64,000 bases of DNA, taken from positions 6,262,001 through 6,326,000 of the forward strand of contig NC_079233.1 in assembly GCF_028502605.1 (NCBI RefSeq). Direction: 5' to 3'. This document shows, piece by piece, positions 15,850 to 30,052 of this stretch; position 1 is the first letter of the stretch; each line of letters begins with the position of its first letter. Both the position numbers and the translations under genes were made by a program. The notes under the pieces are model-generated. The model was given only the letters and a program-made list of their open reading frames with translations, did no database searches and was not told where the DNA came from. The stretch is from Trichoderma breve (lineage: Eukaryota > Ascomycota > Sordariomycetes > Hypocreales > Hypocreaceae).

Positions 15850-16715
15850 TTAGATGGTTAATACAGTTCCGGCCCAAATAAGTGATCGTGGAGGCTCAGA
15901 TTCCCCCTCTTCGGCCATATCCATCTTCCAATCGTGCAATAAGACGAGTCCTGGTTCTACGGCAGGAAATCCTTCCATTATTCTTCCAATATCGGTCATC
16001 GTTCTCATTATCAATGGCGTGGGTGTCCTTGCATAAGCAACCAGCAGGTCTTCAATCGCCTCTTCCTTCTGATACTCCAAGACTCCATGAGTAAAGCTAA
16101 CCAAGCTCCCCGGAGCAAGGTTTTGCCGCAAGGTATTGAGAATACCGCGATCGACATCAATATCAAAAAAGTGCAATAGACCCATCATGACAACGCCCAC
16201 TGGCTTTGAGAAGTCAATGAGATTGCGCGTCTCAGGGTGGTTCAAGATGGGCTCCAGTTCTAGGACCGACCCTTGAATAAATGCCGTTGATGAGTTTCCA
16301 CTGAGGATCTGCCGCCCTTGAACGACAGCAGACTCGTCAATGTCGACATAAACGACGCGGGCATTAGGGTTGACCCTCTGGGCTACTTGATGAGTGTTAT
16401 CAGCACTTGGTAGCCCTGAGCCAATATCAATGAACTGGTCGATGCCTTGGTAGCACATGTACCGAATTACACGTCTCAGAAAATGGCGACCTTCGGCCAC
16501 GATTTCGATGATGTTGGGGAGTGCTTCTTTGACTGCCGCCACGGCGGCCCTGTCTGAAGCATAGTTGTTTTTTCCACCAAGATAGAAGTCATACTGAATT
16601 CAAGTTAACTCAACTTTAATCCTACAAGTTCTATTTCATTCAAAAATGTGAGATATACCATGCGAGCGACAGAAGGTCGCGAGACGTCAACACCACTGGG
16701 AGGGTTGGGATCCAT
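15850..16715 (-). CDS. Methyltransf_19 (DUF574) SAM-dependent methyltransferase, likely bacterial origin
   Basis: S-adenosylmethionine-dependent methyltransferase of the Methyltransf_19/DUF574 family, known chiefly from actinobacteria. Minus-strand exons 16659-16715 and 15850-16593 give 266 residues, the standard family length. The intron 16594-16658 splits the N-terminal signature and its removal restores it exactly: RPSVARM joined to YDFYLGGKNNYASDRAA. Further family motifs: RHFLRRVIRYMCYQGIDQF, the SAM-binding motif FIDIGSGLPS, then NARVVYVDIDESAV. The acceptor substrate is unknown; bacterial members are often near secondary-metabolite genes. No signal peptide, so probably cytosolic. Transfer into the fungus followed by intron gain is my inference from the family's known distribution. 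It is isolated, with a 2.2-kb gene-free stretch upstream. Confidence 0.88.
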
Positions 16716-27109: not shown

Positions 27110-28480
27110 ATGGGATTTTTTGACGATATCGCCAAGGGTTTGGCCCATGCCCAACAGGAGGCTGCCCGACACATCACTCCTGAAAACATCAACCGCGGTC
27201 TCCAGATGGCTCGAGATGGAATTGGCCACGCAGCAGAACAAATCAACCAGGTACATCGTTGAACCGTTCTCGCCAATTTCGCATCTAGAGAACTGACTGG
27301 TCTCAGCATGTCACTCCCGAGAACATCAATCATGGAATCCGAATGGCCCAAGAGGGTATTAATGTTGCAGCTCAGCAGTTCAACCAGGTTCGTCTTCAAA
27401 ATCTACCGCCTTGTCCGAGAGGTTGTTTTATACCAATGTGGTTAAATTTACTCAGCATGTTACCCCGGAAAACATCAACCACGGATTCCAGATGGCTCGA
27501 GAGGGCATCAATGTTGCGGCGCAGCAGATCAACCAGGTATGTCTTCAAGACCGACCGTCTCGCCCGACTTGTTCTGGACTTGGGAGGCTAAACATACATG
27601 TACACAGCATGTCACCCCAGAAAACATCAACCACGGTCTCCAGATGGCTCGGGACGGCATTGGAATGGCAGCCCAGCAAGTTGGCCAGGTGCGTCTTCAA
27701 AGCCTGCCTCATAGACTTTCATATTACGCATTAAACGCTCAGGCGACTGATGTTATTTGTTCAGCACGTCACCCCAGAAAACATCAATCATGGTGTCCAG
27801 GTAGTTCGGGATGGCGTCGGTTCTGCTGTACAGCATATCAGTCAGGTATAGTGCCCAAAGCCTTCATCTTTTTACGTATAACCAACTAACCGAAGGTAGC
27901 ATACCACTAAAGAAAACTTCGATCGAGCTCGCGAAGAAATGCTGAAGGCGGCATCAGGACCAGCTGCTCAGCAGGTAAATACTCCGTTCGCCATGTGCGA
28001 CTTTGACATGCATATACTGGTTGGTTGCTAACATTCGTCAAGGCTGCCGATATTGTGAAGCAACATCCCGTGCCAGTCGCAGTTGCTGGCACTGGAATCT
28101 TGATTGCTGCTATTCCTGGTATTATCACGGCCCCAATTATGGGCATCGCTGGACTGTTGGGCTTTACCTCTGAAGGTATCGCTGCAGGTACGATAGTCTT
28201 CCCGTTGCCCTTCAAATGGGGCATTTTCTTCTATAGTAATTATCCTTGTACATCTACTGACTATTCATGAAATATTATAGCTTCGGTTGCATCAGGCGCA
28301 CAAGCGGGTATGGGAAGTGTTGCTGCTGGAAGCTCATTTGCAGTGATGCAGAGTGCTGCAACCGGAGGATATGGCTTGGCAATCCTGACAGGCATCGTTC
28401 AAACCGTAGGAGGGGTTGCAGCAGCTGTGGGAGGTATTGGAGTTGGGATTCAAGCTTGGCTGGGAGTTTCAGCTACTTGA
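27110..28480 (+). CDS. IFI6/IFI27-like protein with exon-encoded 27-residue repeats
   Basis: Eight exons: 27110-27250, 27307-27387, 27456-27536, 27608-27688, 27765-27845, 27900-27974, 28043-28187 and 28281-28480; 294 residues. Residues 21-155 are five tandem copies of a 27-residue motif (consensus HVTPENINHGLQMARDGI, then xxAAQQxNQ). The first copy ends exon 1 and each of exons 2-5 is exactly one copy of 81 nt, phase 0 at both ends. Exon 6 is a decayed sixth copy (HTTKENFDRAREEM). The C-terminal part, residues 181-294, is Gly/Ala-rich and hydrophobic (VAVAGTGILIAAIPGIITAP, GLLGFTSEGIAA, GYGLAILTGIVQTVGGVAAA). It resembles the IFI6/IFI27 (ISG12) domain that inserts in mitochondrial or other membranes in animals. 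The repeats look amphipathic-helical. Function in fungi is unknown; a membrane-acting role is inference. The C-terminal splice site is shared with the paralogue downstream. Confidence 0.83.
27180..27974 (+). repeat. Array of exon-intron repeat units
   Basis: Successive exon starts at 27307, 27456, 27608, 27765 and 27900 are spaced 149, 152, 157 and 135 bp, each unit being an 81-nt exon (75 nt in the last) plus an intron. Introns after copies 2, 3 and 4 begin alike (GTTCGTCTTCAA, GTATGTCTTCAA, GTGCGTCTTCAA). The duplicated unit therefore appears to include intron as well as exon. The first copy is the 3' half of exon 1. Confidence 0.85.
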
Positions 28481-29113
28481 TCGCTCGGACTGTACCTTGG
28501 CTGCTATTTAGCTTGATATACGGAGTACAGATTCATCATAAATGATTGGATCTCACTTGGGCGCTTATGCTGTTTCGCCGGCGTTTGAGATAGTAAACCA
28601 CGTTTCTTATGACGTGTAACGAGATATTCGTACACCTTAGATGCTCTTCCTCTCTGTCAGTCTGAGCAGTGAGAATTGTATGGAAAGGAAGGTTTCAGTC
28701 TTCAGGTTTGTGATTGTTGTAATCCTGACTTAGATCGCCATAAAGACATTGGTGTTGGGCTCCATCTCACGGCCTCATGCATTATAGGCCTCCCAGGCCA
28801 CCATTGGCGCCCAAATTTCAGCCAGTACATAGCAAAAGGATGCAACCCCTTACCAATTAGAAAAATGATAAAACAAGTGACATTGTAGGGAGAAATCTTA
28901 TTCCTGGCCGCACCAATTGTTTTTTTTTTTTTTTTTTTTTTTTTGTGACAGGCACCTCTGGTGCACGCCAAACTCCTTGGTACATGTAATCAACATCTTT
29001 CATCTTGGCGTCTCCATCTTACAGATATTGGCACCACATCGCAACGCTGAGTTGCGGCGACCACATTCCTACTATTTTTGCTGCAATTACAACAAAACGT
29101 GAGATGGTAAGAA
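28481..29113. other. Spacer between the IFI6/27-like paralogues, with a T25 tract
   Basis: Contains one TACGGAGTA motif (28519-28527) and a 25-nt T homopolymer (28920-28944). No gene could be supported. The right end is the promoter of the second paralogue. Confidence 0.5.
28920..28944. repeat. Poly(T) tract, 25 nt
   Basis: An uninterrupted run of 25 T lies about 170 bp before the ATG of the second IFI6/27-like gene. It could be a promoter dA:dT tract or the remnant tail of a retroposed sequence on the minus strand. I found no convincing target-site duplication by eye. Confidence 0.7.
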
Positions 29114-30052
29114 ATGTCTCTTTTTGCTCAGATTCGAGGAGGTTTAGCAAGCGCGCAGCACGAGCTGTCCAAACACGCCAACACAAGAAGCTTCCATCAC
29201 GCTGCCCAAAAGGTTCAGAATGGCATCCATGTGAGTAACGTAGGGCCACAGCTAAGTTTACTACGTTTTAGAAACATTTATCGCGGATTAAACCTCATCA
29301 GAGCATGTAAACTGACGAAAACAACCAGTCCATGGCGACAGGCCTCAGTGATCAAGTTGCTGTAGAGAAGCAAGGAAACTCGGACAATGTGACCCCAAGT
29401 CTAGCCCAAGAGAACTGCCCTGATGCCAAAATCAAAATGACTGGCGGCAAAGACGCACCGACGAAAGCAACAGCTCACTCAGACATTGCAAATGCCGTCA
29501 CGAACGACGATATCGTCGGCGAATGTTCGAGTATAAACGCTGCTACACAGGATACGGGTGTAGTCGCTGGGACAATCACACAGCTTAGAAAGACTGCTTG
29601 GGAGAATCCTCTACTTACTGCGGCCACGGTAGTTACTGGAACTGGGCTTCTTGTTGTTGCTGCTCCCGCAATTGTCACAGCTCCGCTCATAAGCCTTGCT
29701 AGCGCGGCAGGCTTTACGTCGGGAGGAATAGCGGCCAGTAAGTGAATCTTCAACTCCCATCTATAAGCTGCTCCATGTAGATCTAATATAGATTCATTTA
29801 CTGACTTATTTCGCTACAGCTTCTGCTGCAACGACCGTTCATGCAAGCATTGGGAATGTTGCCGCTGGCAGCATTTTTGCAACATTGCAGAGTGCTGCCG
29901 CTGGAGGATACGGAGTGGGTGTGCTGACTGGCGCAGCTCAGACTGCTGGAGGCGCTGTAGCTGGTGCTGGCGGACTCGGTGGGATTCTAGCTTATCTTAA
30001 GAAGAAGGGCAAGTCGCAGCCAGAGTCCATCGATGAGAAAAAGGATCAATAG
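29114..30052 (+). CDS. IFI6/IFI27-like protein, paralogue without the repeat array
   Basis: Exons 29114-29230, 29329-29737 and 29820-30052 give 252 residues. The N-terminus (MSLFAQIRGGLASAQHELSK) matches the first gene's MGFFDDIAKGLAHAQQEAAR. A hydrophilic linker rich in Asn, Asp, Thr and Lys replaces the 27-residue repeats. The C-terminal IFI6/IFI27-like domain is conserved: VVTGTGLLVVAAPAIVTAP, SAAGFTSGGIAA, then GYGVGVLTGAAQTAGGAVAG. A Lys-rich tail ends it (LKKKGKSQPESIDEKKDQ). The last intron sits at the same codon and phase as in the first gene, so they are tandem duplicates. Intron 1 (29231-29328) contains a decayed repeat copy. The acceptor CAG at 29326-29328 was chosen because it is in phase; other acceptors meet stops. 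Confidence 0.78.
29271..29307 (+). pseudogene. Decayed 27-residue-repeat exon inside intron 1
   Basis: Read in one frame the stretch gives RNIYRGLNLIRAC, matching ENINRGLQMARDG of the intact repeats upstream. It is preceded by an acceptor-like TTTTAG and interrupted by a TAA in the frame that would be spliced, so it is no longer usable as an exon. Confidence 0.55.

What the first reader, a model, noticed from the sequence alone, without database searches (positions are those of the whole stretch)
27110..28480. IFI6/27-like fungal gene in which each protein repeat is one exon
Five copies of a 27-residue amphipathic motif are fused to an IFI6/IFI27-like membrane domain; four of the copies are complete symmetrical 81-nt phase-0 exons. 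Any number of exons could be skipped or added without breaking the frame, so the locus could yield proteins of different repeat number by splicing or by unequal crossing-over. I know of no described fungal system of this kind. The membrane domain is associated with mitochondrial or membrane-perturbing roles in animals.
Basis: partly seen in the sequence, partly recalled or inferred. Interest (0 to 1): 0.85.

Follow-up and report, generated by a model that had tools for sequence, protein, structure and literature searches.

The report
Fungal IFI6/27-like gene with exon repeats
A Trichoderma gene for a probable membrane protein has grown by copying one 81-base exon several times, each copy adding one short helix; related species carry different numbers, and there is no sign so far that splicing changes the number within one fungus.

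Summary
The closest protein is from Trichoderma afarasin, 96% identical. The domain belongs to a broad fungal family (637 proteins, 120 listed), although this protein scores just under Pfam's cut-off. Among 140 proteins held, the repeated HxTPENI array appears only in Trichoderma and three unnamed sequences, with 2 to 6 units by motif. Introns 2 and 3 are still alike and third codon positions carry most differences between units: exon plus intron was duplicated under selection on the protein. Unit number varies by evolution. Exon skipping is unlikely: none was identified in T. longibrachiatum RNA-seq, but no RNA for this gene was available. A tandem paralogue without the array follows (29114-30052). 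Working model: a membrane-anchored domain carrying a helix array whose length is set by exon number. That function is inferred; structure predictions were poor. New variant of a known kind, moderate interest.

The parts
27110..27250 (+). Exon 1: N-terminal helix (20 residues) plus repeat unit 1; ends phase 0
   Evidence: near-identical N-terminus in P0003 and P0002
27307..27387 (+). Exon 2, 81 nt, repeat unit 2, phase 0-0
   Evidence: repeat family D1
27456..27536 (+). Exon 3, 81 nt, repeat unit 3, phase 0-0
   Evidence: repeat family D1
27608..27688 (+). Exon 4, 81 nt, repeat unit 4, phase 0-0
   Evidence: repeat family D1
27765..27845 (+). Exon 5, 81 nt, repeat unit 5, phase 0-0
   Evidence: repeat family D1
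27900..27974 (+).
   Evidence: 20 of 27 residues (two of them from exon 7) match the last unit of T. lentiforme
28043..28187 (+). Exon 7: first half of the Ifi-6-16-like domain; hydrophobic stretch within residues 188-223
28281..28480 (+). Exon 8: second half of the Ifi-6-16-like domain, hydrophobic stretch within residues 259-293, stop codon
27388..27455 (+). Intron 2; alike to intron 3 (z 5.6, 0 of 500 shuffles as good), remnant of exon-plus-intron duplication
27537..27607 (+). Intron 3; partner of intron 2
27689..27764 (+). Intron 4; perhaps alike to intron 5 (z 3.6, 1 of 500 shuffles as good; not firm after 21 pairs tested)
27846..27899 (+). Intron 5; possible partner of intron 4
29114..30052 (+). 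Tandem paralogue, 3 exons (29114-29230, 29329-29737, 29820-30052), 252 aa, Ifi-6-16 domain 34.9 bits, no repeat array

Best explanation
This is a fungal IFI6/IFI27-like (PF06140-type) protein to which an N-terminal array of capped amphipathic helices has been added by tandem duplication of one phase-0 exon together with neighbouring intron sequence. Shown: the exon anatomy, the relatedness of the exons and of introns 2 and 3, a pattern of differences that indicates selection on the protein, and 2 to 6 units in different Trichoderma protein models. Inferred: the C-terminal hydrophobic domain sits in an intracellular membrane; each 27-residue unit forms a cap (HVTPEN) and a helix of about 22 residues that lies along the membrane or packs with its neighbours; the number of exons sets the length of that layer. 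Because each unit is a whole phase-0 exon, gain or loss leaves the frame intact, so unit number can drift or be selected over evolution. Splicing is expected to be constitutive.
For: Exon model, phases and sites. Five in-register DNA copies. Introns 2/3 align better than all 500 shuffles; 4/5 better than 499 of 500 (21 pairs tested). In all 10 pairs of units 1-5 third-position differences outnumber first and second together, e.g. units 2/3: 2, 2 and 12. Motif counts in the window and 13 relatives: 6 in the window, T. afarasin and T. lentiforme, 5 in T. gracile, 3 or 2 in the other full-length ones, 1 in the fragment P0014; 3, 3, 2, 2 in P0016-P0019. Reciprocal best units between the window and T. 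lentiforme at positions 1, 2, 5 and 6; T. evansii units 1 and 2 share 24 of 27 residues, a likely later duplication or conversion. Stretches that read like a translated intron (V...Q) sit at a unit boundary in P0004 (18 residues) and P0014 (23 residues) (DNA not seen). 11 of 11 members of A1 (E <= 0.01) and 80 of 80 of A4 (E <= 0.001) match PF06140. A low-confidence model has one helix per unit 1-5. Helical moments of units 1, 2, 3 and 5 reached by 3.2% of shuffles or fewer.
Against: Of seven array proteins whose PF06140 score I saw, one is above the cut-off of 29.1 (P0019, 30.2) and six are below: window 26.7, P0003 26.9, P0005 24.9, P0017 27.4, P0018 28.9, P0009 28.7. Both structure models are weak (mean pLDDT 39.4; 67.0 with pTM 0.34 for a T. 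virens relative without the array), so helix layer and topology are not shown. Units 1-5 have net charge -1 and low hydrophobicity (0.12-0.26); moments of units 4 and 6 are not exceptional (6.4% and 7.9% of shuffles). 19 of 21 intron pairs show no strong likeness, and 4/5 is not firm once 21 tests are counted. Unit numbers in relatives come from annotators' models; several differ by 3, 5 or 10 residues, real alternative donors or errors, and P0009, P0011, P0012 and P0018 include short 17-residue units. No localisation or expression data.
Confidence: 0.6

Rival explanations
1. The repeats are a soluble helical rod or oligomerisation module, not a membrane-surface layer.
For: Low hydrophobicity and net charge -1 of units 1-5; hydrophobic positions 7, 11, 14, 18, 21, 25 of the unit are spaced like heptads (read from the sequence). 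A PDB sequence search with A1 gave ten matches, none better than E 0.13, a mixture that includes several designed helical proteins.
Against: Weak matches to lipid-binding helix families occur in some relatives: Apolipoprotein in 2 of 11 of A1 (best E 0.0013), Apo-CIII in P0017 (E 0.019) and ApoLp-III in P0018 (E 0.016). All are far below their cut-offs and unrelated families match about as well.
Confidence: 0.35
2. The exon array is a splicing cassette: cells make isoforms with different unit numbers by skipping symmetrical exons.
For: Exons 2 to 6 are all multiples of three and phase 0, so any skip keeps the frame. Donors of introns 2, 4 and 5 (GTTCGT, GTGCGT, GTATAG) look weak by recalled consensus.
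Against: PMC4324775 (T. longibrachiatum): 10034 events, 9369 intron retentions; [quoted passage not shown] Introns here are 54-93 nt. In the one near-identical pair compared, P0016 and P0017, both have three units. Symmetry is expected from duplication alone. The gene's own transcripts were not seen.
Confidence: 0.07
3. The array has synuclein-like lipid-binding function.
For: The array alone scores 31.7 bits to Pfam Synuclein, above its cut-off of 23.3; none of nine column-permuted arrays reached any family's cut-off (best 26.4 bits against a cut-off of 28.6). The whole window protein also passes, 24.1.
Against: No single stretch passes on its own; P0003 scores 22.1, below cut-off, and is the only one of 11 A1 members that matches at E <= 0.01; 6 of 9 permuted arrays gave some hit at E <= 0.01, so repeats inflate such scores. 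Units are 27 residues long and net negative.
Confidence: 0.08
4. The gene is decaying or not expressed; the repeats are a neutral by-product.
For: No expression data for the window species; some public models (P0031, P0032, P0033) hold only the domain, two of them marked partial.
Against: Third-position bias in all 10 unit pairs; array proteins in 14 entries named Trichoderma; a probable spliced transcript in an unnamed T. asperellum-like source (P0016).
Confidence: 0.04

Closest known systems
IFI6/IFI27 (ISG12, FAM14) family, Pfam PF06140 Ifi-6-16
   Same: C-terminal hydrophobic Gly/Ala-rich domain with a shared core (GFTxxGIAAxSxA...GxVAAGSxFAxxQSAxxGGYG, read); paralogue above and array proteins near Pfam's cut-off
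   Different: Animal members are short and interferon-induced (recalled; no animal protein was compared here). Here there is an N-terminal array of up to six helices, each from its own exon in the window gene
Fungal 'Interferon-induced 6-16' proteins (so named in some Fusarium, Colletotrichum, Metarhizium and Diaporthe entries)
   Same: Same domain; 637 proteins at E <= 0.001 in one search, 120 listed, the organisms named in the list being fungi
   Different: Of the 140 proteins held, none from a named organism outside Trichoderma has more than one HxTPENI-type motif; the 517 unlisted hits were not seen
Genes grown by tandem exon duplication, such as collagens (recalled)
   Same: Symmetrical exons, one repeat per exon, number free to change without loss of frame
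   Different: Here in a filamentous fungus with short introns; two full-text searches for fungal cases listed nothing relevant by title and abstract start
Apolipoproteins and synucleins
   Same: Series of short amphipathic helices, here with a proline-bearing cap at most unit starts
   Different: 27-residue units with net charge -1, one exon each; profile matches weak and partly inflated by repetition

Membership tests
IFI6/IFI27-like (PF06140) | Match to the PF06140 profile at Pfam's curated cut-off (29.1 bits) | tested here: inconclusive
   Window protein 26.7 bits, below; of seven array proteins scored one (P0019, 30.2) is above; tandem paralogue 34.9, above. A newer profile, PF06140.19, is listed as precomputed on P0003
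IFI6/IFI27-like (PF06140) | Homology to other members of the family | tested here: met
   Domain profile A3 finds 637 proteins, some named Interferon-induced 6-16; 80 of 80 in A4, a set that I chose from the hits, match PF06140 at E <= 0.001. No animal IFI6/IFI27 was compared
IFI6/IFI27-like (PF06140) | Two or more strongly hydrophobic stretches | tested here: met
   Two, within residues 188-223 and 259-293, Kyte-Doolittle mean over 1.4 in 19-residue windows; hydropathy only, membrane spanning not shown
IFI6/IFI27-like (PF06140) | Mitochondrial or ER location, control of cell death (recalled for animal members) | not testable with these tools
   No localisation or phenotype data
Tandem exon duplication gene | Repeat unit equals a symmetrical exon | tested here: met
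   Four 81-nt and one 75-nt phase-0 exons
Tandem exon duplication gene | Flanking intron sequence copied with the exon | tested here: met
   Introns 2/3: z 5.6, 0 of 500 shuffles; 4/5 suggestive (1 of 500); the other 19 of 21 pairs weak
Tandem exon duplication gene | Unit number differs between lineages | tested here: met
   2 to 6 units by motif in protein models; DNA of the relatives not seen
Alternative-splicing cassette | Transcripts with skipped exons | not tested
   No RNA data reachable for this gene; a report on another species of the genus argues against
Synuclein (PF01387) | Match to the profile, repeated in relatives | tested here: not met
   Above cut-off in the window protein (24.1 against 23.3) and its array alone (31.7), but 1 of 11 in A1 matches at E <= 0.01 and that one is below cut-off; no stretch passes alone

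The most novel reading that the evidence does not exclude
Trichoderma uses exon number as a ruler: a membrane protein whose helical footprint is lengthened or shortened by gain and loss of whole phase-0 exons, fast enough to differ between species and possibly between strains, so that unit number tunes membrane coverage or oligomer size.
Probability: 0.25. Interest if true: 0.7.

Novelty: new variant of a known kind. Interest (0 to 1): 0.45.

Why it matters
It is a clean case of a protein repeat array growing exon by exon in a fungus, on top of a protein family known mainly from animal antiviral responses (recalled). No paper on the fungal proteins turned up in the listings of the searches made, beyond one table entry. 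States with 2, 3, 5 and 6 units exist in living species, so the effect of adding one helix can be tested directly.

Tried and rejected
Exon-skipping isoforms as the main explanation: set aside on the T. longibrachiatum report and intron size, not excluded. Synuclein membership: set aside after relatives and permuted controls (arrays generated), although no control reached a cut-off and the real array did. Structure of the full protein: mean pLDDT 39.4, used only as a hint. Domain model of T. virens P0027 with 80 sequences: pLDDT 67.0, pTM 0.34, too poor for a fold search, so none was run. PDB sequence search: ten matches, E 0.13 or worse. NCBIfam: five proteins, no useful match. Two other weak Ifi-6-16 hits in the same genome (L010, L011) have no HxTPENI-type motif in any of six frames. 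The same Pfam search did not list the window gene or its paralogue, whose domains are split by an intron, so it undercounts. Ten neighbouring open frames gave no functional link. A paper recalled as the founding description of the family was not held.

Limits of counts. In one search the 41 units from 12 proteins were picked by a pattern that itself requires H at position 1, E or D at 5 and N at 6, so conservation there is no evidence; two of the 41 are short units running into the next. The motif misses the middle unit of P0019. The protein searches scored about 8000 candidates each. One search lists five of the eight contig rows that I had set up in the failed. Intron shuffles keep the first 6 and last 3 bases but not dinucleotides.

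DNA of other Trichoderma species was out of reach: the collections offered hold prokaryotes, viruses, phages and plasmids, and no metagenome scan was allowed. Intron positions in relatives are read from proteins only.

Full report
What is there. The gene at 27110-28480 (+) has eight exons with GT-AG introns and encodes 294 residues. Exon 1 holds a 20-residue N-terminal stretch and the first 27-residue unit. Exons 2 to 5 are 81 nt each, phase 0 at both ends, one unit per exon. Exons 7 and 8 encode the hydrophobic domain. The repeat is plain at DNA level: five copies over 95 nt, the other four 68-77% identical to the reference.

Source. The best protein relatives are Trichoderma: P0003 T. afarasin, 96% identical over the full length; P0002 T. 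lentiforme, 85%. P0002 is 467 aa because its model fuses this gene with the next; its last part matches the paralogue that I assembled at 29114-30052. The genome held has 38.5 Mb in 9 contigs; a search of it with the protein gave 10 matches, eight in the exons of this gene and two in the paralogue (only the best candidates are scored, so counts are lower bounds). That both relatives belong to the Harzianum group is recalled.

The domain. The window protein scores 26.7 bits for Ifi-6-16, under the cut-off of 29.1. Of seven array proteins whose score I saw, one is above (P0019, 30.2); the paralogue (34.9) is above too. 11 of 11 members of A1 match at E <= 0.01, 80 of 80 of A4 at E <= 0.001 (A4 was chosen from hits, so this shows consistency, not an unbiased rate). 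A profile of six domains found 637 proteins, of which the best 120 were listed; the organisms named there are fungi and some entries are called Interferon-induced 6-16, a name that may itself come from Pfam. No animal IFI6 or IFI27 was compared.

The array. Of 140 proteins held, 18 have a motif of the HxTPENI core: 14 named Trichoderma, three unnamed (P0010, P0014, P0016) and P0025 (Paraphysoderma) with a single isolated one. By motif count the window, T. afarasin and T. lentiforme have six units, T. gracile five, T. chlorosporum three, the other full-length relatives two or three; these counts include the last, decayed unit and, in P0009, P0011, P0012 and P0018, a 17-residue unit. Window and T. 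afarasin units are identical in units 1-4 and differ at 3 and 1 residues in units 5 and 6.

How it grew. Intron 2 aligns with intron 3 better than all 500 shuffles, intron 4 with intron 5 better than 499 of 500; the next best are 2/4 (13 of 500 as good), 3/6 (17) and 1/3 (25), and with 21 pairs tested only 2/3 is firm. So exon plus intron was copied at least once. In all ten pairs of units 1-5 the third codon positions carry more differences than the first two together, which indicates selection on the protein. Between the window and T. lentiforme, units 1, 2, 5 and 6 are reciprocal best matches; T. lentiforme units 3 and 4 point to window 3 and 4, but window 3 and 4 score higher with T. lentiforme 2 and 1. 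T. evansii units 1 and 2 share 24 of 27 residues, while the best match of its unit 2 in the T. asperellum-like P0016 shares 21, which suggests separate duplication or conversion there.

Are the exon boundaries real? Other annotators' models join units at the same residue. Two proteins contain what reads as a translated intron exactly at a unit boundary, starting with V and ending with Q as GT...CAG would: 18 residues in P0004, 23 in P0014 (DNA not seen). P0016 shares 255 of 266 aligned positions with T. asperellum P0017 and is a 266-aa protein whose longest contig is 906 nt, leaving 105 nt. Entries from the same source (lgn) otherwise seem to read through introns (P0014, P0020), so P0016 probably comes from spliced RNA; this is inference. 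It has three units.

Splicing or evolution? In T. longibrachiatum, 13174 junction clusters gave 10034 alternative events, 9369 of them intron retention, 167 alternative donors and 302 alternative acceptors; [quoted passage not shown] In this gene retention of any single one of the seven introns gives a stop before the normal end. Models of relatives differ by 3 and 5 residues (P0016/P0017) and by 10 (P0010/P0012), as from alternative or mis-predicted donors; that is the kind of variation I would expect, if any. RNA of the window gene was not available, so skipping is unlikely, not excluded.

How it may work. Two hydrophobic stretches (within residues 188-223 and 259-293) suggest membrane anchoring. 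Units begin with a T-P-E-N type helix cap (helix-cap reading recalled) followed by about 22 residues; a low-confidence model gives one helix for each of units 1-5 (24-47, 51-74, 78-99, 105-125, 132-156). Units 1, 2, 3 and 5 have helical moments that 3.2% of shuffles or fewer reach; units 4 and 6 do not. The array's Synuclein match (31.7 bits alone) passes Pfam's cut-off and tops nine permuted controls, none of which passed any cut-off; but no stretch passes alone, six of nine controls hit something at E <= 0.01, and relatives do not repeat it. I favour a helix array lying on or near the membrane, at modest confidence, with a soluble rod or oligomerisation module as main rival.

Literature. Searches for the family in fungi or Trichoderma listed no paper on it by title and abstract start; one paper holds a table entry, a Ferritin_2/Ifi-6-16 protein of Thielaviopsis punctulata (PMC10051545, one passage seen). 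Two searches for fungal exon duplication listed nothing relevant. Most subscription papers are not in that library.

Verdict. Real, well formed and, in what was searched, restricted to Trichoderma; ordinary in mechanism (tandem exon duplication), unusual in setting and in the protein family it was added to. On checking, confidence in the best explanation was set at 0.60 instead of 0.62, because most array proteins scored fall under the Pfam cut-off and the intron 4/5 likeness is not firm.

Noticed in passing
window 29114-30052 (+): Tandem IFI6/27-like paralogue with a related first exon but no array. Adjacent locus tags MKX08_009308/009309 (P0018, P0029) suggest the pair is kept in another Trichoderma, and the T. 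lentiforme model fuses both.
   Followed up: yes
window 15850-16599 (-): Open frame with a strong Methyltransf_19 match (233 bits), a family that I recall mainly from actinobacteria; possible horizontal transfer into a fungus.
   Followed up: no
P0031, P0032, P0033 (T. atroviride, T. citrinoviride, T. reesei models): Public models hold little more than the domain, two marked partial, so an array gene may be misannotated in these genomes.
   Followed up: no
P0017, P0012, P0018, P0009, P0011: Units shortened by 3 or 10 residues at the end, as if an in-frame donor inside the unit were used; real alternative donors or annotation errors.
   Followed up: partly
L010 and L011 (contigs C7 and C3 of the same genome): Two further weak Ifi-6-16 matches (22.0 and 21.7 bits) without HxTPENI-type motifs in six frames.
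   Followed up: partly
P0069 and P0126 (Neonectria ditissima AK830_g8803, AK830_g8802): Two Ifi-6-16 proteins with adjacent locus tags and no array: tandem pairs of the family may be common in fungi.
   Followed up: no
window 28920-28944: Run of 25 T between the two tandem genes.
   Followed up: no
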